This document shows, one piece after another, positions 48,722 to 64,000 of a stretch of 64,000 nucleotides of DNA. Source of the stretch: Frankia alni ACN14a (GTDB lineage: Bacteria > Actinomycetota > Actinomycetes > Frankiales > Frankiaceae); contig NC_008278.1 in assembly GCF_000058485.1 (NCBI RefSeq), positions 6,814,962 through 6,878,961 of the forward strand. The letters run 5' to 3'. Position numbers and translations under genes: made by a program. Numbering within the stretch: the first letter of the stretch is position 1; the number at the start of each line of letters is the position of its first letter. The notes beneath the pieces were generated by a model. That model saw only the letters and a list, made by a program, of their open reading frames with translations. It searched no databases and was not told the DNA's origin.

Positions 48722-49045
48722 ATGACAACTGCCCGGTCAGCCGCCTTCGGCTACATCGCCGTCCAACACGCCGATGAAGCCGAGATCGAGCAGTTCCATG
48801 ACGAGCTCATGGCCTACGCCAAAGACCACACCCTCGCCATCGTCGAAATCTACGTCGACCGCCGCATCATTCCCGGCAGCCTCCTGCGCCCCGGCCTCGA
48901 CATCCTCATTAGCAGCCTGAAGGAATACGACAGCGCCCGCGTGCTCGTCCCCACCGCCGACCATCTCTCGCCCGCCGATAGCGTCCGCACCGCCATCCTC
49001 GCCCACCTCACCGCCCTCAGAGCCGTCGTGGTGGTGACGGCGTGA
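48722..49045 (+). CDS. small protein resembling a degenerate serine-recombinase catalytic domain
   Basis: 107 residues. The layout follows the resolvase N-terminal domain: FGYIAVQHAD where active enzymes have GYxRVS, LMAYAKDHTLAIVEIYVD, then LLRPGLDILISSLKEYDSARVLVPTADHLS. The catalytic serine and its neighbouring arginine are not present at the expected place, so recombination is unlikely. A regulatory or structural role is inferred. Its stop overlaps the next gene start as GTGA. Confidence 0.6.
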   Translation: MTTARSAAFGYIAVQHADEAEIEQFHDELMAYAKDHTLAIVEIYVDRRIIPGSLLRPGLDILISSLKEYDSARVLVPTADHLSPADSVRTAILAHLTALRAVVVVTA

Positions 49046-49461
49046 CCATCTCCGGCCCGTCTCACCCGTCTACTCCCGACCCGAACCGCCACCCCCTGGC
49101 CCAGATCCGGGCCGCCCGCGGCTGGAGCTACCAGCAGCTCGCCCGCCTCATCGCCGCCCGCGCCCGTACCCAAGGCATCGGCATGGCCGCCGAACGACAG
49201 AAAGTCTGGCGCTGGGAACACCGGGGCGTCACCCCCGACCGCGCCACCCAACGCATCCTCGCCGAAATCCTCGGAGTGCCGCCCGAGCAGCGCGCCGCCC
49301 GCCCCTGGCCCGCCTGGCTCCCCACCGTCCAACCCGCCCCCTGCGCCTGCGACAACGCCGAGCTGCGGCGGGAGCTGGCGGAGGCCCGCGTCCGCCTTGC
49401 CGAGCTCACCTGCCAGGCCCAGCAGCGGCCGGCGTGCCGCACGTTGCAGCGGCAGAGGTAG
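49042..49461 (+). CDS. XRE-family helix-turn-helix protein, possibly truncated
   Basis: 139 residues. The HTH part (LAQIRAARGWSYQQLARLIAARAR, KVWRWEHRGVTPDRATQRILAEILGVP) resembles actinobacterial XRE regulators, followed by a short coiled coil. The C-terminus (RPACRTLQRQR) abuts the IS66 relic, so the original 3' end may have been lost. Start codon GTG within the upstream stop; likely cotranslated with the recombinase-like protein. Confidence 0.7.
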   Translation: MTISGPSHPSTPDPNRHPLAQIRAARGWSYQQLARLIAARARTQGIGMAAERQKVWRWEHRGVTPDRATQRILAEILGVPPEQRAARPWPAWLPTVQPAPCACDNAELRRELAEARVRLAELTCQAQQRPACRTLQRQR

Positions 49462-49469
49462 CAGAGGAG

Positions 49470-50403
49470 ACCGGATGATGTGCTGGCAGCAGAGCTGGAC
49501 CCCGGCGAGCTGGTCATCGTACTGGTGCCAGCCGGCGTAGTCATCGCGCGTCAGGTAGCCGTGCCAGCCGGCGAGTACTCCGGTGGCCTCGATCGCCTCC
49601 GACGAGTGTGAGCTGATCGCCGCGTACCACATCAGCCCGGGTGTCGGGGTGCGGACCACCAGCAGGTGCGGGCTGCCCGACGGGACCGTGCCGGTGGCCT
49701 CGTCGAGGATCCGGCGTAGCACGTTGACCGGCGACTCGTCGCCGCACAGCACCGCCTCGGCGCGCAGCGCTGCCTTCATCGCCTCGTCGAACCCGGCGGC
49801 CGCGAGGTCCCGGGCGAGCCGCTCGTCCGCGCGGGCGACGAACCCGGCCGAGACCGGCACCCCGAGCAGCGCACAGACCACCATCGCGGCCCGCTCGCCG
49901 GGCATGTTGCGTCGGACGCGAGCAGCACCGCCGCCGCGTGCAACCGCGGCCCGTAGGACACCGTGCCCACCGCCGCGTTCCGGACCCCCGGTACCGACCC
50001 GGCCCTGACCTCCCGACAGCAGCCACAGCGCCGCCGCGGCAGCGCCCACTCGACCTTTTTCAGCACCGGGTCGAGCAGGTACCAGACCTGCGCCCACCTG
50101 TCCGCGAGCACCTCGGCGCCAGCCAGGTCCGCCCGGCACGACGAGCACTCGGCCGGCGGGTCCGTCGGTAACGACCGGTCCGGCTTCGCCTCTCGGCGCA
50201 GCCCCGACCCCTTGCGCCCCCGCTACCCGCCCGGCTTCTTCTCCTTCGAACGGACCCGCTCCGAAGCCTGCCGCCGCCCGGCCTTCCGCTTCTCCTTCGC
50301 GCCGATCGGCTCCTTTGACGGAGGCGTCGAGGAGTTCGCACTGTCCATCGACACCCGCCGTCGCAGCTCGGCGACCTCCAGCTCAAGATCGCCGATCAAG
50401 TAA
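49470..50403 (-). pseudogene. IS66-family transposase relic
   Basis: Read leftward from about 50403, the N-terminal IS66 sequence is clear: ELRRRVSMDSANSSTPPSKEP, then KPGG followed by an in-frame TAG at about 50225, GSGLRREAKPDRSLP, CSSCRADL, DRWAQVWYLLDP and CGCCREV. Around 49905 the homology moves to another frame: MPGERAAMVVCALLGVPVSAGF, ADERLARDLAAAG, DYAGWHQYDDQLAGVQLCCQH. There the match ends and the C-terminal third is missing. At least one nonsense and one frameshift mutation plus truncation mean it is dead. Terminal inverted repeats were not found. Confidence 0.85.
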
Positions 50404-50475
50404 CTACCGCGACGTGTCCCCTCAACACAAACCCCAAGGTCAGCGACCTACGGCCGCTCACCCCTCAATGGACAC

Positions 50476-50504
50476 TTGACTATGTGTCGACTGAAATAAA
50501 TATT
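50476..50504 (+). promoter_or_regulatory. candidate promoter of the TIGR04141-like gene
   Basis: TTGACT at 50476-50481 and AATATT at 50499-50504 are 17 bp apart in an abruptly AT-rich stretch upstream of the GTG at 50554. Confidence 0.45.
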
Positions 50505-50553
50505 CGACTCTAATAGAGACCACTTCACAGCCGCCCTTGAGAGAGAGTTGAGC

Positions 50554-52218
50554 GTGGCACATAAGCCGTGGCTTCGTAGCAATATCTATCTCCTTCGGCG
50601 CGAATCAGGGCAGTCACTCACAGATCTTGTCGAGCTTGACGAAAACCCTGATAAGCGGATCGACAGGTACAATCTACGCATTGATGATCAACCGGCACTC
50701 CTGGTTCACGCCTCCGTCTCTCGAAGCCAGGCTCGCTGGTCAAAGTCCCTAACCGCATTGACTGGGGCAGAAATAGCAACGGGCAGCAGCAACCCCTCCG
50801 CCGTACTCCTGATAGATCTCGACGGACCCGTGTTCGCGCTCTGCTATGGCACGACCGGCATACATATGCTCAGCCAGCACGCAATTGAACAGGGGTTCGG
50901 GCTTCGAATCGCAATACGCGTACTCGAAGCAGAGAAGATTCGCCAGCTTACGCGTCTCTCGCTCGATAGCCGGGCACGCGTTGACCGCAGTTCAGTAGCT
51001 GGTGGGCAGGAGGTAGGTGGATTCGGCGTCGAGACATTCGCCGAGATTGTCAACCGCATCGCGGGCAGGACAAGTTCCCTGAATATCAGCTATGCGCGGG
51101 AGCGAGCCGTTTCGTTCTCCCTTGAAGGAGCGGACGGCCTTCGCCTCTATCTTCCCACCGATCCGCTTGCACTGATCGATGACCTCCGTGGGCTGCTCGA
51201 TGTTCTTCGGCAGCCACCAGCCGAGGGACTCGAATTTATCGAGAAGGTGGAGCGGCTCCGTCGCAAGGACCGCCGTATTCCCGGGCTGGATCGCCGCCTC
51301 GCCGAGGCTCTCGACGCTCCGGGCCAGCGTGCTGTCGGCCTCAGTGTGCCCGGTCCGTATCTCGATGAGCAGGAGGAGATACAATCATACGAGCTCAAAT
51401 TAGGGCGTAATCGCCGAGTAAGTGAGGAAGTAGAGCTTGAACAAATTCTGGGGTTAGTCGCTAAGATCAATCCGGAAGGGCGCCGAGCAGCTCTTCGCCG
51501 AGGTCGCATTGTGGGCTGCACCGACCGCGATGGCATGGAGCCCTGCGGACAGCCCACCGCAGCCGAGTTATGGGTTACGGCAGAGCTCCCTGGAGAGACG
51601 CCCGAGGACCCGCATCGCTACGTATTTCAGCAAGGTCACTGGTACGAAGTCCACGGGCAGGAGTACCTGGACTTCCTTCGACGCGAAGTGGAAAATATCC
51701 TCGATGCTCGCCTCCCTTGGAGCCTCCCGCCTTGGCCTATGGACCGCAAGACGGGGCGTCGGATTCACGAAGGTTGCTACAATCGCAAAGTCGCCGAAGC
51801 CGATGAGAGATTTGTCCTTCTCGACAAAAATTTGATTCGCTCGCCGACGCATCCAACCGGATTTGAAACATGCGATCTTCTTGGCCCGGACGGCGAACTC
51901 ATACATGTCAAGAAGGCTGACTCGTCAGCCCCTCTCAGTCATCTTTTCAGCCAAGGATTGATCTCCGCCGACACACTCTGCATCGATCGTGTCGCAGTCG
52001 ACCAATTAAAGGCAAAGATCTCTGCTGTAAGCCCGAATCACGCGCACCTCGTGGAGCGCCCTCGCGCCGTTGTCTATGCGATTCATCTAGCGGGCGGGAT
52101 GCTGACACCCGAGTCACTCTTCACCTTCGCCACTATAGCACTCGTTCGAGCCTACCGCCACATTTACAGCAGGCTTGGGATTCCTACCTATGCGATCGGA
52201 ATTCCATCGACTCCCTGA
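50554..52218 (+). CDS. TIGR04141/DUF6119-like sporadically distributed protein
   Basis: 554 residues from a GTG after GAGAGAG. Overall layout fits the TIGR04141 family: an N-terminal IYLLRRESGQSLTDL, a central CYGTTGIHMLSQHAIEQGFGLRIA and a C-terminal ENILDARLPWSLPPWP, CYNRKV and FETCDLLGPDGELIHVKK-SHLFSQG. The ETCDL...HVKK segment (about residue 450) looks like a PD-(D/E)XK core (acidic pair, then hydrophobic-x-Lys), suggesting nuclease ancestry, which is inference. Base composition is much AT-richer than neighbouring genes and TTA leucine codons occur, consistent with recent transfer. Convergent with the next gene. Confidence 0.7.
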   Translation: MAHKPWLRSNIYLLRRESGQSLTDLVELDENPDKRIDRYNLRIDDQPALLVHASVSRSQARWSKSLTALTGAEIATGSSNPSAVLLIDLDGPVFALCYGTTGIHMLSQHAIEQGFGLRIAIRVLEAEKIRQLTRLSLDSRARVDRSSVAGGQEVGGFGVETFAEIVNRIAGRTSSLNISYARERAVSFSLEGADGLRLYLPTDPLALIDDLRGLLDVLRQPPAEGLEFIEKVERLRRKDRRIPGLDRRLAEALDAPGQRAVGLSVPGPYLDEQEEIQSYELKLGRNRRVSEEVELEQILGLVAKINPEGRRAALRRGRIVGCTDRDGMEPCGQPTAAELWVTAELPGETPEDPHRYVFQQGHWYEVHGQEYLDFLRREVENILDARLPWSLPPWPMDRKTGRRIHEGCYNRKVAEADERFVLLDKNLIRSPTHPTGFETCDLLGPDGELIHVKKADSSAPLSHLFSQGLISADTLCIDRVAVDQLKAKISAVSPNHAHLVERPRAVVYAIHLAGGMLTPESLFTFATIALVRAYRHIYSRLGIPTYAIGIPSTP

Positions 52219-52241
52219 GTCTGATACTGTCCCCGATGCTT

Positions 52242-53516
52242 TCATCCAGGAGTTACTCGCTTCGCAACAATGGTAGATCTCCCGCTACGCAATGACTCCT
52301 CTATCGCATCGGCAACGATTTGAGTTCCGGTCCCGCGTGAGCCGATCCATCCGTCCGCCATAAGCTGCGTGAAGATGGTATTATTCAAGTATCGTGGAAT
52401 GTTCTTCAGGGCCAATCTTCGACCTCCGCGTGGACCCTTCATTGAATCGTCGTCGAGGAGCTCCTTAAAATCTTTTTGCGGCAGATAGAACCCTGGAGAA
52501 AGATCTCCCGACCTGGGGCTGAACGGCGTTGGCGTACAGAGTTTAATAAGACACGGAGTGGCGAGAAGACGTGGATCGGCAGCGACGTCCTCCGAGCATT
52601 TTTTGTCGACCTCGGCCATCCGATCGAGCTGTTTTTCAATGTGATTATCGGGGCGATATATCCATTGCCCACCATCCTCACCGCCTTCCATTCTCTTGTA
52701 TTGCACAAGAACAAAACAGCGATGGTTCTCGTGGTAGTAAATAAAATCGACGCCGAGAGTTTCCTCTACAGGAGTTCTATTGGCAGAGTACACGTATAGC
52801 CGATGATCTCCTTCGGGGCCCGGCCTCCGTAGCATGCCCCACCCATAATGGAGTGTCGGCTCTTGGATTGAATCAGCGAAATTCATCAGGTCGTGCTGGA
52901 TCAGCTGATCCTCGATCAGCCAGCCCGACATTCCGCTTAAAAATGGAACTGAAACCTGCGGATCGACGGGCGGTCGCCATGAAGAAAGCAATTCGCGTCG
53001 CTTAAAACCTGCAATGTCTAGAGCTATGCCAAAGGCATCTCGCTCCATCTCAAGAATCTCTCCAGCGTTACCCGGAGGGCCCTTTTCGGCGAGAAGATTA
53101 AACAGCTCTGCGATCACAGTAATGAGACCGGGACGTTCCTCTACAACGGCTTCTTGAAGACGCTCGGATTGATTTTCTGTAAGGGGGCCGTCGTCGTCGA
53201 GAAAGGCATGCGGTCCGCGCAAGGACTCGCGGATATCCTCGATGCGAAGCGGGGGATTTATTTGTCTAAACTCATCAACCTCAATTTTGCGTTCATAATC
53301 CGTCACCCGACGCCCCGGGTCGACAAGACCAATGCCCAACAGCTCGCCGGGTTGGGTAGAGCCCGAGACAAAGAATGCAACGCACCAACGTCGTGGGCTC
53401 CACTCTCGGTGCGGATACGCGAAGGTACGGCTGGCCGCAGGTAGACTCGCGCCGGTGAGCACCGAACGGATGATGTCATTGCAGCGCACCAGCGCAGTCA
53501 CAGCCACAAGAGACAT
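52242..53516 (-). CDS. probable PD-(D/E)XK-type nuclease of unknown family
   Basis: 424 residues. No family recognised overall, but LGVDFIYYHENHRCFVLVQYKRM (read as GVDFIYY then FVLVQYK, about residues 255-275) has the hydrophobic-Asp...Gln-x-Lys pattern of the Mrr-like nuclease core, preceded by an acidic stretch VEETLG. A helical N-terminus and a basic C-terminus (GRRLALKNIPRYL) surround it. AT-rich like its convergent partner, 23 bp away, and probably acquired with it. A restriction-like role is inferred. Other starts than ATG 53516 cannot be excluded. Confidence 0.6.
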   Translation of the reverse strand: MSLVAVTALVRCNDIIRSVLTGASLPAASRTFAYPHREWSPRRWCVAFFVSGSTQPGELLGIGLVDPGRRVTDYERKIEVDEFRQINPPLRIEDIRESLRGPHAFLDDDGPLTENQSERLQEAVVEERPGLITVIAELFNLLAEKGPPGNAGEILEMERDAFGIALDIAGFKRRELLSSWRPPVDPQVSVPFLSGMSGWLIEDQLIQHDLMNFADSIQEPTLHYGWGMLRRPGPEGDHRLYVYSANRTPVEETLGVDFIYYHENHRCFVLVQYKRMEGGEDGGQWIYRPDNHIEKQLDRMAEVDKKCSEDVAADPRLLATPCLIKLCTPTPFSPRSGDLSPGFYLPQKDFKELLDDDSMKGPRGGRRLALKNIPRYLNNTIFTQLMADGWIGSRGTGTQIVADAIEESLRSGRSTIVAKRVTPG

Positions 53517-53720
53517 ATTATTGGACTTAGCGAGCTGCGGCCACTACTTGAAGATCGCTGATGCGAGAGCAACCTCCACCGCAAATGAATTGGCTGAGTG
53601 TCGGGCTTCCCAGCGAGCCGCGGAACCACCCAAAGCATCAGTGGCTTATATCCATCCCCGTTGCCGAGCCAGGTTGAGGACCCGGCCGTCGCCGACGGCG
53701 AGCCCACCACATGTTCTCCG

Positions 53721-55880
53721 TCACGCATTGTCCGGAGCCGATGGCAGGAAGGGCGATTGGCGGCCGGTCCAGGTGATCCGGAGGTGTTCGCGGGCGCGGG
53801 AGCCGGCTACGTAGGCGAGGCATCGTTCCTGGGCCAGGCGCCGTTCGAGTTCCTCGGCGTCGTCGACGTCGCTGACGGGGAACGGCAGGATGTCCTCCTC
53901 GAAGCCGATCAGGGCTACCGCGCGGAATTCCAGGCCCTTGACCCGGTGCATGGTCACCAGCCGCACGCCCGGCCGCACGGCGTCGTCCGGTGAGTCGGAG
54001 GCGAGCACGAGCACGTCGAGCCCGGCGCCCCGCAGTGCCTTCTCCGCTTCCTCGACCAGTTGCCGCGTCCGCGCGACCACACCGATCTCGTTCGGCGAGA
54101 TCCCACCGTCGATCCACTCCTGGACCGCCGACGCCAGAGCGGACAGTTCGTCCTCGCGCCGAACAAAGCCGCGGGTTCTCGGCGGCGGTCCCGTGAACTC
54201 CGAACGCGCACCGGCCAGAGTGTCCGCCGTGTCCTCCAGGTCGTCGACGGTCATGCCCGCGATCACGCCCATGCACCAGCGGAGGATCTCCCGGGAGGTG
54301 CGGTAGTTGACCGTCAACCGGCGGGAACGTCCCCGCGTCTCGATGCCGAGCGCCGACAAGGTGACCTTGTAGGCGTAGATCCGCTGGTGCGCGTCGCCGA
54401 CCAGGAAGATGTCGTCCGGTCCACTCGGCACCACGTGGCGAAGCAGCCGCCAGTGGGCCGGATGCAGGTCCTGCGCCTCGTCGACGACGGCGTGCCGGTA
54501 CACGACCCCGCTGGTCGGCACCTGCGCGGCCCGGCTCGCGATCTGGGTGAAGGTCGTCCGCTCGTGCGCGTCCAGGAGCAGGGCGAACCGCTCGAAGATC
54601 TGCCACAGGGCGGCCCGGTCGATCCGGCTGAGGCGCCGGCCCCGGCCGGCCCGGGTGGCCTTGAGGTAGGTGGCTCGGTCGGTGATGCCCTGGGCGAGGA
54701 CGACGGTCGACCATTCCGCGATGAGGAAATCGACGGACCAGGCGGTCGAGGCGGCGTTCCCGGCGCTGGCGGTGCTCGCGGCGGCCTGTTCCCACAGGTC
54801 GCGGATCTTCTGATCGGTGTCACCGAGGACGGTGACCTTGCGGATCTTCTCGCGGTCCGTGTCGGTCGCCGCGAGCACCCGGCGGGCCAGGCCGTCGACG
54901 GTCAGCACGTCGACGGTCTGCAGGATCGCCGGCCCGGCCAGCTTGACCAGGTTCTCCTTGATCGACTGGGCGAGCGTCCGGGTGAAGGTCGTGAACAGGA
55001 TCTTGTCATTCGGGTAGGCGCCCGCCAGGTGCACCGCCCGGTGCAGAGCGGTGACCGTCTTCCCGGTGCCGGCCCCGCCGGTGACGCGGAACGGGCCGCC
55101 GTAGCCGTGCCGGTAGGCGATCCGGCGCTGCAGCGGATGCAGCCACACCCGCCACTTCTCGAACGAACCTTCCAGGACCGCCCGCAGATCCGCCTCGCTG
55201 GCAGGGTTGGAGAAACTCAGCCGCGACAACGGCCGTTCCAGCGCGACCAGCACGTCGTCGGTGGCGGTGGCTGGTTCGCCGGCTTCGTCACCGACGAGGT
55301 CTGCCCAGACCTCGTCGACGCTGCGACCGGCCGCGAGGTCGAGCACGGCGTCCGCCTGGGCGCGGGGCAGCTTGCTGGCGACGTCGAGCAGGCGGTCCTC
55401 GTCGGCGATGCGCAGCAGGTCGCCGGCGACCGTGCTGTCGATTCCGAGCCGGACCAGGTCGCGTTCGCGCAGCGACCCGAGGATCGGCGGCTTGCCGGCC
55501 GGGACGGGATGCGCCACGGCCGTCGCGGTCGCCTCGCTCAGGGCCAGGGTGTCGGTCAGTTCGAGCGCGCCGGTGACCTCGTTGATGCCGAACCGGACGT
55601 GGCTGGCGAAGGTGTAGGCGTCATCGTGCGGTTTGACCGCGGCGAGGACGAACCCGGCCGACTTGGGCAGCTCAAGCAGCACGGCCCGGAAGTTGTCGTT
55701 GACCCGCGCTGTGCGCACCCGCCGGTCGATGGCGCCCTTCGGCTGTTTGAGGTCGAGCCCGGGTGTGTCGGGGGCGCGCTGGAGCTTCATCAGGAAGTCC
55801 ATGACACGGGTCTTGATGCTGCCGTCCAGAGCGTCGTACGACGCCTGGAACAGGTCCGACAGGATGACGCTGACGGTCAC
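53721..55880 (-). CDS. UvrD/Rep-type helicase with RelE/ParE-like N-terminal domain
   Basis: 719 residues. Residues 1 to about 95 have the RelE/ParE toxin-fold pattern: VMDFLMKLQRAPDTPGLDLK, VRTARVNDNFRAVLLEL and HDDAYTFASHV. From about 230 onward it is a superfamily 1 helicase: Walker A GGAGTGKTVTALHRA (about 268), DEAQD (about 466), GDAHQRIYAYK, motif V VTMHRVKGLEFRAVAL and motif VI AYVAGSRAREHL. The GTG start overlaps the stop of the DUF1998 helicase gene (GTGA). Third gene of the defence-like operon. DNA translocation is expected; whether the toxin-like domain cleaves RNA or only binds is unknown. Confidence 0.85.
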   Translation of the reverse strand: MTVSVILSDLFQASYDALDGSIKTRVMDFLMKLQRAPDTPGLDLKQPKGAIDRRVRTARVNDNFRAVLLELPKSAGFVLAAVKPHDDAYTFASHVRFGINEVTGALELTDTLALSEATATAVAHPVPAGKPPILGSLRERDLVRLGIDSTVAGDLLRIADEDRLLDVASKLPRAQADAVLDLAAGRSVDEVWADLVGDEAGEPATATDDVLVALERPLSRLSFSNPASEADLRAVLEGSFEKWRVWLHPLQRRIAYRHGYGGPFRVTGGAGTGKTVTALHRAVHLAGAYPNDKILFTTFTRTLAQSIKENLVKLAGPAILQTVDVLTVDGLARRVLAATDTDREKIRKVTVLGDTDQKIRDLWEQAAASTASAGNAASTAWSVDFLIAEWSTVVLAQGITDRATYLKATRAGRGRRLSRIDRAALWQIFERFALLLDAHERTTFTQIASRAAQVPTSGVVYRHAVVDEAQDLHPAHWRLLRHVVPSGPDDIFLVGDAHQRIYAYKVTLSALGIETRGRSRRLTVNYRTSREILRWCMGVIAGMTVDDLEDTADTLAGARSEFTGPPPRTRGFVRREDELSALASAVQEWIDGGISPNEIGVVARTRQLVEEAEKALRGAGLDVLVLASDSPDDAVRPGVRLVTMHRVKGLEFRAVALIGFEEDILPFPVSDVDDAEELERRLAQERCLAYVAGSRAREHLRITWTGRQSPFLPSAPDNA

Positions 55881-61800: not shown

Positions 61801-62311
61801 TGCCGCCGATGTAAACGCCGGCGGTCACCCGGGTGAGTGCCGGCTCGTCGTGCAGTAGGCGGGCGATGCGGCGGGCCTGGTCGGTGACCAGGGCGTTCAT
61901 CGGGTACAGCAGGATCGCCTTGATGCCGTCCTCGCCGCGTTCCCGGGCCCGGCGGCAGTGGTCGAGGATCGGGATCAGGAACGACTCCGTCTTCCCCGAG
62001 CCGGTCCCGGTGGTGACGATCGTCGGCTGGGCGTTGTGACCGTCGGTGGACAGCCGCTCGAACGCCCGGGCCTGGTGGATGTGCGGCCGGAAGTCCCGCG
62101 GCAGCCAACCCAGCGGTGAGCGCCAGTTCTCATCCACCGACCGGAACGGCGTGCGCAGCCGCAGGTACGGGCCGCGGAAGATGCCGTGCTCGCGGTCCTC
62201 CAGGAACTGCCGCAGCGCCGCCCTGGCCTCGTCATCCGCGAGCGCGAACGTCGTCGTCAGGTATTCGAGGACCCCGGCCCGCGTCTCCCCCGCCAGCAAC
62301 GACGGAATCAC
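55877..62311 (-). CDS. giant DEAD/DEAH helicase with DUF1998 and C-terminal Vsr-like nuclease domain
   Basis: 2,144 residues, starting at a GTG that overlaps the methyltransferase stop. Superfamily 2 helicase: Walker A TTGTGSGKTESFLIPIL (about residue 100), DEFH box VVLDEFHTYDGAQGTD (about 230), ATSATLGSG (about 270), TPTLELGIDIGDL and QRVGRAGRATG (about 1058). Zinc clusters include CRHCGRSGW, RCPACG, CPNCGWG...CPRCGGSG and CPCRLEG...CHRCLLG, the last within a DUF1998 region (LHDMVPGGTGYLDRV). At about 1740-1790, IPDFLF, VYLDGRRYH and RDARQRRSLRAAGYRVWSLTW form a Vsr/DUF559-like nuclease. GAPG repeats act as linkers. Related to DISARM DrmA/DrmB and Druantia DruE helicases. Confidence 0.88.
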   Translation of the reverse strand: MIPSLLAGETRAGVLEYLTTTFALADDEARAALRQFLEDREHGIFRGPYLRLRTPFRSVDENWRSPLGWLPRDFRPHIHQARAFERLSTDGHNAQPTIVTTGTGSGKTESFLIPILDHCRRARERGEDGIKAILLYPMNALVTDQARRIARLLHDEPALTRVTAGVYIGGTGTHAASSPEHLVDRRDVLREHPPDILLTNYKMLDFLLLRREDATLWQRSAASLRFVVLDEFHTYDGAQGTDVAMLFRRLGATLRVAEPGRPLGRVIPVATSATLGSGTRRDDMRVFAERVFGTPFDADALIGEDRLDPAEVVDRIDFTLPVPKPDEVVAVTEPAADEPASWAELAAVFAGHEDSGAGAPGAPGAPGAPGPSGPADGGGLDLTDPVVLGERLRTHFITRAALQALSATPLTLRDAVDRVAEAGVLSWGVRKAERPDEVASALLRFLALLSYARVRDSAGNPRPLLQVEVQLWIREIRRMLRAVDTRPEFTWWHDGALEIERTWLPAAYCRHCGRSGWQAVAPEVGNVLRRSPLEVWQASVRDRARVRTLLLARDGEADVRHLVTSTLELLDTPDEGTIPVLATPDAEAAADQRCPACGADDAVRFLGSSVATLVSVALTQLFGSDLAANAEKKTLVFTDSVQDAAHRAAFIEGRAFQFNLRSVLLGAIGEGPTSLHAVARGLAGAPAADLYAVTPPDFPRRLGLEGEWLHRPTATLRRILNSRLAFQAQLEFGLRSRLGRTLELTGAVAVDYDVDLDRLALLTRAVHEQLPERGLDGLLPEPAGYVPWLWGLLDRLRTGGGIMHDSLVTYVNRDGDRYPIWGGSRKGMPKFPRGMAAPTFFTSGSGGRWRQFAALNPSGDTATWLTDWTVRCLGVPAREGKALLLRVAAMLAGDEVGVWARRTTGSGAVVYGWDPERILLLPVEDDALAGGRARMRCGVCRYVQPIAPHRRAVVDGAPCPRFRCPGVLAAEAGEPANFYRGMYRSGRVRRIVTHEHTGLLDRALREDVERRFKANSSPIDPNILACTPTLELGIDIGDLGAVTLASLPRTTASYLQRVGRAGRATGNALVLAGVPSGPRDLYYFAEPSHLLDGEVTPPGAYLNATELLYRQFFAYCLDRVAAGDLVLPSPPPNLTGQLVRHGLDPGGWMRRLLDAIAASAADLADGFLDLFGPHLDAASRDSVHQFAAGGVEGMVSRAFGDWLRRERELGDRLVTLQQAINDLERLGHLDDEQKADRRRWIGERKAVRFMLDRMRDTPLLTGLEQMGLLPNYTLIDDRTVLDVSLWWTTDDGEKEYQTAEYQYERGSMTAVGELAPGAAFYARGQRIRIDAVDIGPLDEPLWQAWRLCPNCGWGTSDADAAVSTCPRCGGSGVADTGAVHRMLPLRRVSALHSRDDSVIDDDADDRERVPFTLVSSVDVDPEHVTRAWRLSGVAFGAEYVRRAVVRRINVGPRGRFGQRLSIAGEEVQVPRFPTCVYCGVVNGSQTDNPRGTTRHRGWCATRGGTAERWEDLLLHHDLATQAVRLLLPVSTLRVSERLVSFTGALLLGLRHDFGGDPQHLRVVAVSMPDRQGGTRRYLVLHDMVPGGTGYLDRVGDPERLRALLTAARTHLTDCPCRLEGRAACHRCLLGVVESRDVEYADRAVALDLLGQVLDHWDIDEITSVADINIDQVELTEIELRFAELVRRWVAEQAGADSSATALAGPAGRPELDLRLRLLDGGAIRWRMQAQVPVDLPAGRTIPDFLFTRQDAQSLPIAVYLDGRRYHASVEHNLTDRDARQRRSLRAAGYRVWSLTWDDVEGFARMLDDLGAGADVDDNLVDVVTQNRIRERVADPRLPVVWGNPMTMLVTYLTDPEAALWAEAAVAAALALVASSTTLPSVLTRAGLVSHLAAAGRGDPSPPAAGAGSTPGVGAPGAPGAAGTGSMVWAARTSRRGCPLYVMAERGDVAGTVGLVGVLDDRDEVVGGTEHRAAWIDWLRWANLAQFLPRPRSDSVASRQFADFVTVREADTYDPSLHPLAVAPRSEPGLAVLPAGWEPVLDLVDPTLRPLALVLVRGRPDLSVPEPGWEVGPDNAAWQLELAWPDDRVAVVLDAEPARDAWLDAGGWLIVTWQEGTDPGPAAAQIIDRLGGRPNEGNDLEAEAR

Positions 62312-64000
62312 GCGCCGGCCCGCTCGACCGCCCCGCTCGGCGTCCCCGCCAACTTCACCCCACCCGGTGGTTCCGCCAGCTCCGCCCCGGTCTCCGGGTC
62401 GAGCCCGAGCCGCCGCGCGAACTCGGCGTAGGCGGCCCGCATCTCCGCCTCCCGATCCGGCTTCCGGAACGGCCCCCGATACCGATCCGCCAACTCCGGC
62501 GGCGCATCACAGTCCAACCCACGATCCGCAACCCAGGCATGCAGGATCTTGTAGTCGTCCTTCTGCTGCTTGACCCCCATCGCGTGGTGATCCTTCGCGA
62601 TCTTGCGACCCTGGGCGTCGAAGTACATCGCGTACTCGTACTTGCGCAGCACCGCGAACTGCGCCCGGTACATGAGGCACAACTGCTCCGCGGTCAGCCC
62701 GAGCATCAGCGCCGCCAACGCGTCGATCTCCACCAGCGCCGCCCGCCGATCAAAGTCGAACCGCAACGGCGTCGCCATCGTCCACTCTCGCTCGGCCACC
62801 CCAAGCGCCGGCCGGTCCGTAAACGGCGGCGTCCACCCGTCCTCGGCAAAACCCGTCTCATAAAGTTCTTCCCACAACGGCGCGTAGTCTGCCGTCAGGC
62901 AATTCAATCGCAGAGCCCGCGAGGCAAGCCATGGCCTCGCGGGGTGGCCGATCGGTAGCGGAAAGCGATCAACCGTCTCTTTGGCGACTTTGCTCATACC
63001 GCTCACCTTGACGAGATAGTCATACGGCAATGAAGACCATAGACCTGCATTGATCACCGTATTGTGTTTGCTTTCAAGGGCCAGAGAGTGGACAGCGTGA
63101 ACATGAGTCGGCCCTGGCGGAATGATTGCCGCATGAAGCGACCGCTCATTGTCGGCGCTGACCATATTCCGCCAGGCTAGACGCCAAACATCGGTGAAGG
63201 GTCGGCCATCCCAAAGACTTATCGCTTGACGGAAGGTTGCAATGTCACATGCGCGCCGATAGTTCGTGCGGGGTAGAACTTCCCGATCCAGGGCCTCAAA
63301 ATCAAATGGAGAATAGTCTTTGTTGCTTCTACAATTCAAGTTGGGTTGCCGTGCGAGTGGCGTCGCGGAAGTGAAGTGAGGCCCTTGTAGTATTACGCCA
63401 TCCCACGATCCCGGTAGATGGGTGTCCCAAACTATATAGCCATCCTTCTTTGCTTGACCTTCATCCCAGCAAAGAGACCAGTTAAATCCGATGTCCGCAA
63501 GCCGCACTCGTTGTCGTGAGATAGCCTCCAATATTTCCTGATGCTCGGCCACGAGAGGCCGCATGAGTCGGGCCTCGGTCCAAGGTGACCCTGGTGGGTC
63601 AAAAAGTCTTCCCCAGATCTGCAGAGTCTTCTCGTCGACACGAACGATACGCGAAGAGTGAGGTCGAAGGTCCCAGCCGCCTTGCGGAAACTGTATTCCC
63701 GGTATTTCCCCAAAGCCGTCGTGAACTAGAGATTCGTCAAGGATTTCGGGCCGGACAATTCGCGCAATATTTCGGAACTCGACAACTCTTGGTTGACCAT
63801 AGATATTTACTCCAAATGATTCCTTATTGTCCACTTCCGCAAAAAGAAGAAGATTGTTGCCGAATTGCGCGTGGAGGCGGAGGCGCCGATACGCCTCCAT
63901 GCGCAATGTGCCCGCTCGAGGATCCGAGTAATGCCCTTCAGGATGCAATAGACCAGAGATGCCAATCGCACTACTGGAGCGCCAAACTCGCTCAACGAAA
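62308..64000 (-). CDS. type IIG-like DNA methyltransferase, C-terminal part (N-terminus beyond right edge)
   Basis: 563 residues are visible and the frame is open through the right edge without a stop; the TTG at 63948 is only an internal codon. The segment LLHPEGHYSDPRAG followed by RRLRLHAQFGNNLLLF, FGVNIYGQPRVVEF, then GWDGVILQGPHF and LPRTNYRRACD is typical of the post-catalytic and target-recognition part of Eco57I/PglX-like adenine methyltransferases. The SAM motif and NPPY should lie beyond 64000. Codons for about 63000-63950 are AT-richer than the 3' part, suggesting a swapped recognition domain. Upstream gene of the GTGA-coupled operon. Confidence 0.8.
   Translation of the reverse strand, partial: FVERVWRSSSAIGISGLLHPEGHYSDPRAGTLRMEAYRRLRLHAQFGNNLLLFAEVDNKESFGVNIYGQPRVVEFRNIARIVRPEILDESLVHDGFGEIPGIQFPQGGWDLRPHSSRIVRVDEKTLQIWGRLFDPPGSPWTEARLMRPLVAEHQEILEAISRQRVRLADIGFNWSLCWDEGQAKKDGYIVWDTHLPGSWDGVILQGPHFTSATPLARQPNLNCRSNKDYSPFDFEALDREVLPRTNYRRACDIATFRQAISLWDGRPFTDVWRLAWRNMVSADNERSLHAAIIPPGPTHVHAVHSLALESKHNTVINAGLWSSLPYDYLVKVSGMSKVAKETVDRFPLPIGHPARPWLASRALRLNCLTADYAPLWEELYETGFAEDGWTPPFTDRPALGVAEREWTMATPLRFDFDRRAALVEIDALAALMLGLTAEQLCLMYRAQFAVLRKYEYAMYFDAQGRKIAKDHHAMGVKQQKDDYKILHAWVADRGLDCDAPPELADRYRGPFRKPDREAEMRAAYAEFARRLGLDPETGAELAEPPGGVKLAGTPSGAVERAGA

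What the first reader, a model, noticed from the sequence alone, without database searches (positions are those of the whole stretch)
50404..53720. AT-rich pair: TIGR04141-like protein facing a probable nuclease
Right after the IS66 relic the sequence changes to much AT-richer DNA carrying two convergent genes 23 bp apart. One belongs to a sporadic family of unknown function and the other has a D...QxK nuclease core. Both may be nucleases. The pair is bracketed by a transposase relic and a helicase operon, a typical cargo slot for an uncharacterised defence module.
Basis: partly seen in the sequence, partly recalled or inferred. Interest (0 to 1): 0.65.

Follow-up and report, generated by a model that had tools for sequence, protein, structure and literature searches.

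The report
Two partnered defence nucleases beside helicases
Two facing, foreign-looking genes at the end of a bacterial anti-virus gene cluster each appear to encode a DNA-cutting enzyme, one with a part shaped like readers of chemically marked DNA; in other bacteria the same two gene families travel together as one mobile unit, which suggests a back-up weapon against viruses and gives a widespread nameless protein family its first testable job.

Summary
After an IS66 relic, two convergent AT-rich genes lie 23 bp apart: P1 (50548-52218, TIGR04141/DUF6119) and P2 (52242-53516, unnamed family). P2's AlphaFold2 model (pLDDT 84.5) pairs an N-terminal EVE/YTH-like fold with a C-terminal RecU-like PD-(D/E)xK nuclease; its catalytic residues are invariant in 44 of 44 homologues. 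P1's model is poor; the six best fold matches, all to its C-terminus, are nuclease folds, weakly scored. In eight Alphaproteobacteria a 3-kb P2-P1 unit (4-bp overlap) is 90-99.9% identical while most flanks are unrelated; it sits in type I restriction operons or alone, both genes under purifying selection. A ninth pair is divergent, the window convergent. But pairing is the minority: 0 of 23 fetched P1 regions hold P2 and 8 of 80 P2 genome loci hold P1. Each family is a promiscuous defence accessory: P1 in type I RM and DISARM operons, P2 beside BREX, Gabija, type I RM and DISARM/Druantia-like genes. Here P2 ends a DrmD-like/methyltransferase/DruE-like/UvrD run. Best reading: a two-nuclease back-up module, P2 probably modification-dependent (type IV-like). 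The nuclease call is well supported for P2, moderate for P1; base reading and co-operation are inferred.

The parts
48853..50148 (-). IS66 transposase relic left of the pair
   Evidence: DDE_Tnp_IS66 E 6e-12, residues 80-226 of one frame
50548..52218 (+). P1: TIGR04141/DUF6119 protein, 556 aa, GC 57.6%, convergent with P2
   Evidence: NCBIfam TIGR04141 442 bits, Pfam PF19614 381 bits; GC
51727..52215 (+). P1 C-terminal domain (residues 394-556), PD-(D/E)xK-like; E408, D443, K455, Q469
   Evidence: VIA hits 2inb Z 6.4, 2p14 6.0, 4g6u 5.3, 3bm3 5.3, 1cfr 5.3, 6eko 5.2, 8ti9 Shedu 4.8; E408, D443, Q469 in 16 of 16 and K455 in 14 of 16 homologues. Whole model pLDDT 56; ten-residue means 62-87 over 391-540
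52242..53516 (-). P2: unnamed family, 424 aa, GC 53.6%
   Evidence: No Pfam or NCBIfam family above cut-off; one weak PADLOC match, HEC-02B E 0.0065
53079..53513 (-). P2 N-terminal EVE/YTH-like (PUA superfamily) domain, residues 2-146
   Evidence: VIA: VcaM4I EVE-HNH 6yex Z 10.2 (126 aligned, 2.9 A), 1zce 9.7, 2ar1 9.6, YTH domains 8.8-9.3, THYN1 with 5mC DNA 8.9
52344..52940 (-). P2 C-terminal PD-(D/E)xK nuclease domain, residues 193-391; E202, D257, Q272, K274
   Evidence: VIA: RecU 5fdk Z 9.7, 1zp7 9.4, 2fco 9.3; residues invariant in 44 of 44
53721..55880 (-). UvrD/Rep-family helicase, 204 bp upstream of P2 on the same strand
   Evidence: UvrD-helicase E 2e-23; 39% and 35% identical to two UvrDs in the P2 locus L079, 40% to one near P1 in L131
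55877..62311 (-). DruE-like DEAD/DEAH helicase with MZB domain, 2144 aa, overlapping uvrD by 4 bp
   Evidence: PADLOC DruE3 E 4e-85, Pfam DEAD 6e-19 and MZB 4e-11
62308..63997 (-). 3' part of a 1594-aa type IIG/DrmMI-like methyltransferase that continues beyond the window
   Evidence: Full gene in L151: REase_MTase_IIG 1060 bits, DrmMI 186 bits

Best explanation
P1 and P2 are two accessory restriction nucleases attached to a DISARM/Druantia-like helicase-methyltransferase defence operon. P2 carries a PUA-superfamily reader-like domain of EVE/YTH shape in front of a PD-(D/E)xK nuclease. Its most likely action is to dock on DNA that carries a modified base (phage hypermodification or foreign methylation) and cut it, as type IV enzymes do. 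P1 carries a second PD-(D/E)xK-like nuclease domain behind a large N-terminal part of unknown fold, and works with P2 or in parallel. Together they form a portable back-up layer that catches phages whose DNA escapes the methylation-sensing main system. Shown by computation: P2's two-domain fold with an invariant catalytic core; the operon contexts; joint transfer and purifying selection of the pair in Alphaproteobacteria. Inferred: the P1 nuclease call (moderate), base reading by P2, physical co-operation of P1 and P2, and activity in this host.
For: P2 fold; invariant E202/D257/Q272/K274 in 44 of 44. P1 C-terminus. Mobile pair: P2-P1 with a 4-bp overlap, 90.1-99.9% DNA identity in eight loci; 3-kb flanks align at length only among L038/L044/L048, other pairs sharing at most about 270 bp next to the unit. 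Three of the eight are embedded as hsdM - PDC-S14 - hsdS - P2 - P1 - hsdR (PADLOC for L044; L038 and L048 by DNA alignment, clusters and BLAST). L042 keeps hsdR-start-like sequence after P1's stop; L006, L035 and L046 more faintly. dN/dS 0.085-0.219 for P2 and 0.032-0.100 for P1 over 21 pairs of seven of the eight loci. Pairing also divergent in L058. The P1-paired label needs three changes on the P2 tree, all forced by well-supported branches. P1 inside a DISARM class 1 operon (drmD-drmMI-P1-drmA-drmB, L129) and type I RM operons (L014, L141, L145, L130). P2 beside BREX, Gabija and type I RM genes. Window P2's nearest relative in the tree, L017, lies one gene away from drmB-drmA-drmMI homologues; L079 has DruE-like, UvrD, UvrD, AAA, P2 in that order with small genes between.
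Against: Foldseek alone gave no PDB match at E <= 0.001 for either model, and profile searches found no credible PDB relative (best E 0.26 and 0.44). Pfam on 44 P2 members found neither an EVE nor a nuclease family at E <= 0.1. P1's model is weak (pLDDT 56; best Z 6.4, below the 7-8 that models without a clear match typically reach), its list also holds many non-nucleases such as GATOR1 and decarboxylases, and K455 is lost in 2 of 16 homologues. P1 and P2 show no profile similarity. P2 is absent from 23 of 23 fetched P1 regions. Of 50 P2 genomes searched, 5 hold P1, 3 of them adjacent. In samples of 396 and 398 genomes only the two centres held both families (the P2 search scored at most 4 candidates a genome, so P2 may be undercounted). 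Eight of the nine other pairs are one clade and the ninth is a near relative of it. The window's place in the tree joins two long branches. A base-binding pocket was not tested.
Confidence: 0.5

Rival explanations
1. P2 and P1 are unrelated accessory nucleases that defence-island clustering placed side by side here. P2 belongs to the helicase operon, P1 is an independent module, and their convergence is accidental.
For: P2 is absent from 23 of 23 fetched P1 regions; 72 of 80 P2 genome loci lack P1; each family has its own repertoire of host systems; here the genes are on opposite strands.
Against: Pairing occurs in tandem, divergent and convergent order, with three label changes on the P2 tree; joint transfer of the tandem pair with both genes under purifying selection. 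The window's UvrD has a homologue near P1 in L131 and others in a P2 locus, L079.
Confidence: 0.33
2. P1 and P2 are effectors commanded by the host system (helicase, BREX, Gabija or type I RM complex). The main system recognises DNA and hands it over, and the EVE/YTH-like domain of P2 is a docking fold that reads no base.
For: Embedding inside operons with overlapping genes; a BREX survey proposes PD-(D/E)xK auxiliary and back-up effectors (PMC12839542, passages seen).
Against: The P2-P1 pair persists outside type I RM operons with both genes under purifying selection, so it does not need that system. The N-terminal matches are modified-base readers and their kin, though YTH entries are many in the PDB and fold is not function.
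Confidence: 0.3
3. P1 and P2 form a heterodimeric nuclease in which each subunit cuts one strand, so that a double-strand break needs both.
For: The second-best fold match of P1's C-terminus is the small subunit of the heterodimeric enzyme R.BspD6I (Z 6.0); 4-bp gene overlap in the tandem pairs.
Against: Z 6.0 is not significant and tied within 1 with other restriction-enzyme folds; the majority of P1 and P2 loci examined lack the other.
Confidence: 0.1

Closest known systems
EVE-domain modification-dependent restriction endonucleases (VcaM4I, EVE-HNH)
   Same: Best fold match of P2's N-terminus (6yex, Z 10.2, 126 residues). The start of the VcaM4I abstract describes many such enzymes as a PUA-superfamily sensor plus a nuclease domain (PMC7897488, listing).
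   Different: P2's nuclease is PD-(D/E)xK (RecU-like), not HNH; 11% identity; no Pfam EVE match; modification dependence untested.
EVE/YTH/DCD-PD(D/E)XK fusions noted by Bell et al. 2020
   Different: I could not tell whether P2 is among their proteins (supplements not available); P2 has no named family in Pfam, NCBIfam or PADLOC above cut-off or beyond one weak match, and the passages seen do not mention TIGR04141.
TIGR04141 / DUF6119
   Same: P1 is a clear member (442 and 381 bits).
   Different: No function assigned in the family names; no held paper contains TIGR04141 and the one with DUF6119 is, by its title, about wheat MADS-box genes. New here: DISARM and type I RM context, P2 pairing, nuclease-like C-terminus.
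DISARM class 1 and Druantia (DruE)
   Same: The neighbouring operon has DrmD-like, DrmMI/IIG-like and DruE-like proteins; a TIGR04141 gene sits inside a DISARM operon in L129.
   Different: The window operon also has UvrD and P2, and its large helicase scores best as DruE with only weak DrmA matches; it fits neither system exactly.
Shedu (SduA) nuclease
   Same: One of the restriction-enzyme-like folds retrieved by P1's C-terminus (8ti9, Z 4.8).
   Different: Weak match; no PADLOC hit at E <= 0.01 in 16 of 16 P1 homologues.

Membership tests
TIGR04141/DUF6119 (P1) | Score above the curated cut-off over the full model | tested here: met
   442 bits vs cut-off 35 over residues 12-550; 381 vs 27
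PD-(D/E)xK nuclease superfamily (P2) | Restriction-endonuclease-like fold | tested here: met
   In a predicted model, residues 193-392 align with RecU resolvases at Z 9.2-9.7, 134-138 residues, 3.3-3.9 A; that RecU is of this superfamily is recalled
PD-(D/E)xK nuclease superfamily (P2) | Conserved acidic residues and D...(D/E/Q)xK lysine | tested here: met
   E202, D257, Q272, K274 in 44 of 44
PD-(D/E)xK nuclease superfamily (P1) | Restriction-endonuclease-like fold | tested here: inconclusive
   The six best rows are nuclease folds, but best Z is only 6.4, unrelated folds follow closely and the model has pLDDT 56
PD-(D/E)xK nuclease superfamily (P1) | Conserved catalytic residues | tested here: inconclusive
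   E408, D443, Q469 in 16 of 16; K455 in 14 of 16
[quoted passage not shown]
   Order of strands and helix in the model and VIA Z 8.8-10.2 to EVE/YTH-type entries; definition from a passage of PMC7641849
EVE/YTH (PUA superfamily) reader (P2 N-terminus) | Recognition by the Pfam EVE family model | tested here: not met
   No EVE match at E <= 0.1 in any of 44 members, so P2 is not filed as an EVE-family member
Type IV (modification-dependent) restriction enzyme | Cuts modified DNA only | not testable with these tools
   Needs biochemistry
DISARM class 1 (host operon) | drmD, drmMI, drmA, drmB, drmC (list recalled) | tested here: inconclusive
   DrmD-like 2e-77; methyltransferase better as IIG (1060 bits) than DrmMI (186 bits); helicase closest to DruE3 (4e-85); drmB and drmC were not sought across the whole region
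Druantia (host operon) | druE with its type-specific partners | tested here: inconclusive
   DruE-like protein present; no other Dru protein appears in the listed rows for P2, UvrD, the methyltransferase and the SNF2 helicase, but the UvrD, DruE-like and SNF2 lists are cut at 25 rows

The most novel reading that the evidence does not exclude
P2-P1 is a self-sufficient, mobile two-nuclease restriction system (EVE/YTH-like reader nuclease plus TIGR04141 nuclease) that plugs as an interchangeable back-up effector into unrelated defence operons, so that each family on its own is a universal add-on to RM, DISARM, BREX, Gabija and Druantia-like systems.
Probability: 0.3. Interest if true: 0.75.

Novelty: new variant of a known kind. 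Interest (0 to 1): 0.57.

Why it matters
TIGR04141/DUF6119 was found in about 3% of sampled species in each of two phyla (12 of 396 and 11 of 398 genomes, centres included), and I found no paper on its function. This work ties it to restriction and DISARM operons, and gives it a predicted nuclease end and a recurrent partner. P2 is an unnamed two-domain enzyme that turns up beside several known defence systems, which suggests that these systems draw on a common pool of add-on nucleases, perhaps aimed at phages with modified DNA. The roughly 3-kb alphaproteobacterial cassette is small enough to test directly.

Tried and rejected
Obligate pair: rejected (P2 absent from 23 of 23 fetched P1 regions). 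Genome-wide attraction beyond adjacency: not seen (of 50 P2 genomes, 2 have P1 away from P2, close to the background of about 3%; I gave only 50 of the 80 loci and left out five of the eight adjacent ones, so its 3 adjacent cases are no estimate of frequency). Shared ancestry of the P1 and P2 nuclease domains by profile: no signal. A hidden P1-like partner next to other P2s (for example the 530-aa gene in L083): no HMM hit up to E 1 among called neighbours other than known P1s and fragments. PDB by sequence: nothing credible. HEC-02B: one weak match in 1 of 44 members, not pursued. P1's N-terminal domain: only low-Z matches (TTM enzymes, CENP-N, RexA, RdgC), no claim made. The phages collection, searched with P1 only, gave one relative, in a Pseudomonas phage beside integrase genes; IMG/VR gave two P2 and two P1 loci. 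The join of window P2 with L017 rests on two long branches and is unsure. The tree counts label changes only among 29 labelled rows; L077 also has Gabija genes but was unlabelled there. Of the 23 fetched P1 regions, 20 were not scanned against PADLOC. An empty-site comparison within the genus was not done.
Full report
OBSERVATION. P1 (50548-52218, +, 556 aa, TTG start) and P2 (52242-53516, -, 424 aa) are convergent and 23 bp apart. Their GC is 57.6% and 53.6%; the IS66 relic to the left is 73.3% and the UvrD and DruE-like genes to the right are 70.2% and 73.9%. P1 is a TIGR04141/DUF6119 protein well over both curated cut-offs. P2 reaches no Pfam or NCBIfam family; its only PADLOC match is HEC-02B at E 0.0065. 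The relic is IS66. In the order to which the genome belongs, P2 is found in 1 of 35 genomes (its own) and TIGR04141 in 4 of 35, its own included.

SURROUNDINGS. On the minus strand P2 is preceded, 204 bp upstream, by uvrD, which overlaps by 4 bp a 2144-aa DruE-like DEAD/DEAH helicase with an MZB domain, which in turn overlaps a methyltransferase by 4 bp. Just beyond the window (L151) the methyltransferase proves to be 1594 aa (type IIG 1060 bits, DrmMI 186 bits), followed upstream by a DrmD-like SNF2 helicase (E 2e-77) and, 334 bp further, a TrwC relaxase/RecD-like protein of 1447 aa. So P2 looks like the last gene of a DISARM/Druantia-like operon close to a conjugation gene. A similar order recurs in Nocardia thailandica L079: a DruE-like tail (27% identity over 419 residues), two UvrDs (35% and 39% identical to the window's), a AAA protein and P2, all on one strand with small genes between. 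P2's nearest relative in the tree, L017 of Nonomuraea, has homologues of drmB, drmA and drmMI one gene away (31-34% identical to those of L129). L131 has a P1 and a UvrD 40% identical to the window's, separated by one gene.

P2 STRUCTURE. The AlphaFold2 model from 44 sequences has mean pLDDT 84.5. Foldseek gave nothing at E <= 0.001, its best being 2ar1 at E 0.033. VIA-align gave, for residues about 2-146, Z 10.2 to VcaM4I, an EVE-HNH restriction enzyme, 9.2-9.7 to 1zce, 2ar1, 2g2x and 2eve (EVE proteins, recalled), 8.8-9.3 to YTH domains and 8.9 to THYN1 bound to 5mC DNA; and for residues about 193-392, Z 9.2-9.7 to five RecU entries. The tool warns that models without a clear match typically reach Z 7-8, so these values are above that but not large, and YTH entries are numerous in the PDB. 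E202, D209, N246, E251, G255, D257, Q272, Y273, K274, R316 and K325 are identical in 44 of 44 sequences, the homologues being 21-33% identical to the window protein. Against this, Pfam finds no EVE or nuclease family in any of the 44 at E <= 0.1. I read P2 as a reader-like domain plus a PD-(D/E)xK nuclease; base reading itself is inference.

P1 STRUCTURE. With ten sequences the model is weak (pLDDT 56); residues 391-540 are better, at 62-87. The first six VIA rows are all to the C-terminus: XisH (Z 6.4), R.BspD6I small subunit (6.0), CdiA-CT (5.3), PspGI (5.3), Cfr10I (5.3) and PfoI (5.2). Shedu (4.8), SgrAI (4.7) and R2 endonuclease regions (3.7-4.7) follow, mixed with unrelated folds such as GATOR1 subunits (up to 4.8) and decarboxylases (4.0-4.5). 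That the first group are PD-(D/E)xK folds is recalled, not computed. E408, N412, D426, E440, D443 and Q469 are identical in 16 of 16 diverse homologues and K455 in 14 of 16. Foldseek alone found nothing significant. I rate the nuclease call for P1 as moderate.

PAIRING. Of 80 P2 loci from named genomes (the best 80 of 125), 8 have P1 next door: seven in tandem and one, L058, divergent. Of nine plasmid records with P2, eight were examined (the ninth is a near-copy of one of them) and one, Paracoccus pAMI8, is a further tandem case. In the eight tandem loci the unit of about 3.0 kb is 90.1-99.9% identical in DNA. The 3-kb flanks align at length only among L038, L044 and L048, where the order is hsdM - PDC-S14 - hsdS - P2 - P1 - hsdR (PADLOC on L044; L038 and L048 by alignment, clusters and BLAST). 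Outside that trio pairs share at most about 270 bp next to the unit (L006/L046 211 bp and 269 bp; L034/L035 60 bp and 153 bp; L034/L046 165 bp at 71%). Homology otherwise ends close to P2's start and P1's stop, but the sequence after P1's stop in L042, and more faintly in L006, L035 and L046, still resembles the first bases of hsdR in the trio. The simplest reading is that the pair left a type I operon and was kept. Both genes are under purifying selection (dN/dS 0.085-0.219 for P2, 0.032-0.100 for P1; 21 pairs of seven loci, L034 left out as a near-copy of L035). On a P2 tree of 86 of 91 loci the P1-paired label needs three changes, all forced by starred branches; three changes may also be one gain with two losses, L058 is a near relative of the tandem clade, and the window's place is unsure.

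RESULTS AGAINST AN OBLIGATE PAIR. None of the 23 fetched P1 regions (L128-L150, some cut by contig ends) contains P2, in called genes or in six frames. Of 50 P2 genomes searched whole, chosen from the 80, 5 contain P1, three of them adjacent and two elsewhere. In samples of 396 and 398 genomes P1 was found in 12 and 11 and P2 in 4 and 4, and only the two centre genomes (G000, G448) held both; the P2 search scored at most four candidates a genome, so its counts may be low. The pairing is real but the minority state, and eight of the nine other pairs are one clade.

WHAT EACH FAMILY KEEPS COMPANY WITH. P1: within DISARM class 1 in L129 (drmD, drmMI, P1, drmA, drmB, with 4-bp overlaps on both sides of P1); within or abutting type I RM genes in L014, L141, L145 and L130; near them in L015, L135/L016 (contigs of equal length, taken as one plasmid), L142 and L150. 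Seven of the 23 fetched regions show RM or DISARM genes (L129 and L130 by PADLOC; L135, L141, L142 and L145 by BLAST to PADLOC-labelled proteins; L150 by weaker matches); 20 of the 23 were not scanned against PADLOC. P2: beside BrxC and PglX homologues in seven loci, one clade (PADLOC on L024); beside GajA and GajB homologues in nine (L008, L010, L027, L029, L041, L052, L065, L072, L077; PADLOC on L027, L065 and L072), with L078 and L091 added by clusters; beside type I RM genes in L040 and L083 besides the trio; after a DrmD-like helicase and a IIG methyltransferase in L045, PDC-S68 in L017 and an Avs1b-like protein in L088, and before PDC-S06 in L059. Many other P2 neighbours were not identified.

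MECHANISM. From this anatomy the most likely role is an add-on cutting layer. The host system marks and senses DNA by methylation; P2, with a reader-like domain, would attack DNA bearing the wrong modification; P1 supplies a second nuclease. Fusions of YTH-like domains with PD(D/E)XK nucleases and EVE proteins near type I RM have been described (PMC7641849, passages), and PD-(D/E)xK auxiliary effectors have been proposed for BREX (PMC12839542, passages), so the kind is known. The pairing and TIGR04141's context were not found in print in the searches, whose library holds open-licence papers only; whether P2's family appears unnamed in a published table could not be checked.

VERDICT. Observation confirmed; interpretation partly supported. 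New variant of a known kind; interest 0.57.

Noticed in passing
L151 11258-15598 (own genome, right of the window): A 1447-aa TrwC relaxase/RecD-like gene lies just upstream of the helicase operon, suggesting an integrated conjugative element or its remnant.
   Followed up: partly
window 49174-49254, -: ARAGORN calls a tRNA-Gly(ccc) within the IS66 relic region, overlapping several open frames; possibly spurious.
   Followed up: no
L060 7116-8792 and 9704-11050: Two P2 paralogues in tandem in a gammaproteobacterial MAG.
   Followed up: no
L129 1415-15516: A DISARM class 1 operon (drmD, drmMI, drmA, drmB recognised) carries a TIGR04141 gene between drmMI and drmA.
   Followed up: yes
L112 2890-4599 (Pseudomonas phage vB_PaeS-D14B): A TIGR04141 relative sits beside integrase genes near the end of a phage record, as phage-borne cargo.
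   Followed up: no
L003 and L004 (relatives of the window genome): Divergent TIGR04141 proteins in which the otherwise conserved lysine K455 aligns with valine; possibly inactive, repurposed or misaligned.
   Followed up: no
L074/L150 and L084/L149: Two genomes hold P2 and P1 at separate places; one P1 (L149) carries an internal stop.
   Followed up: no
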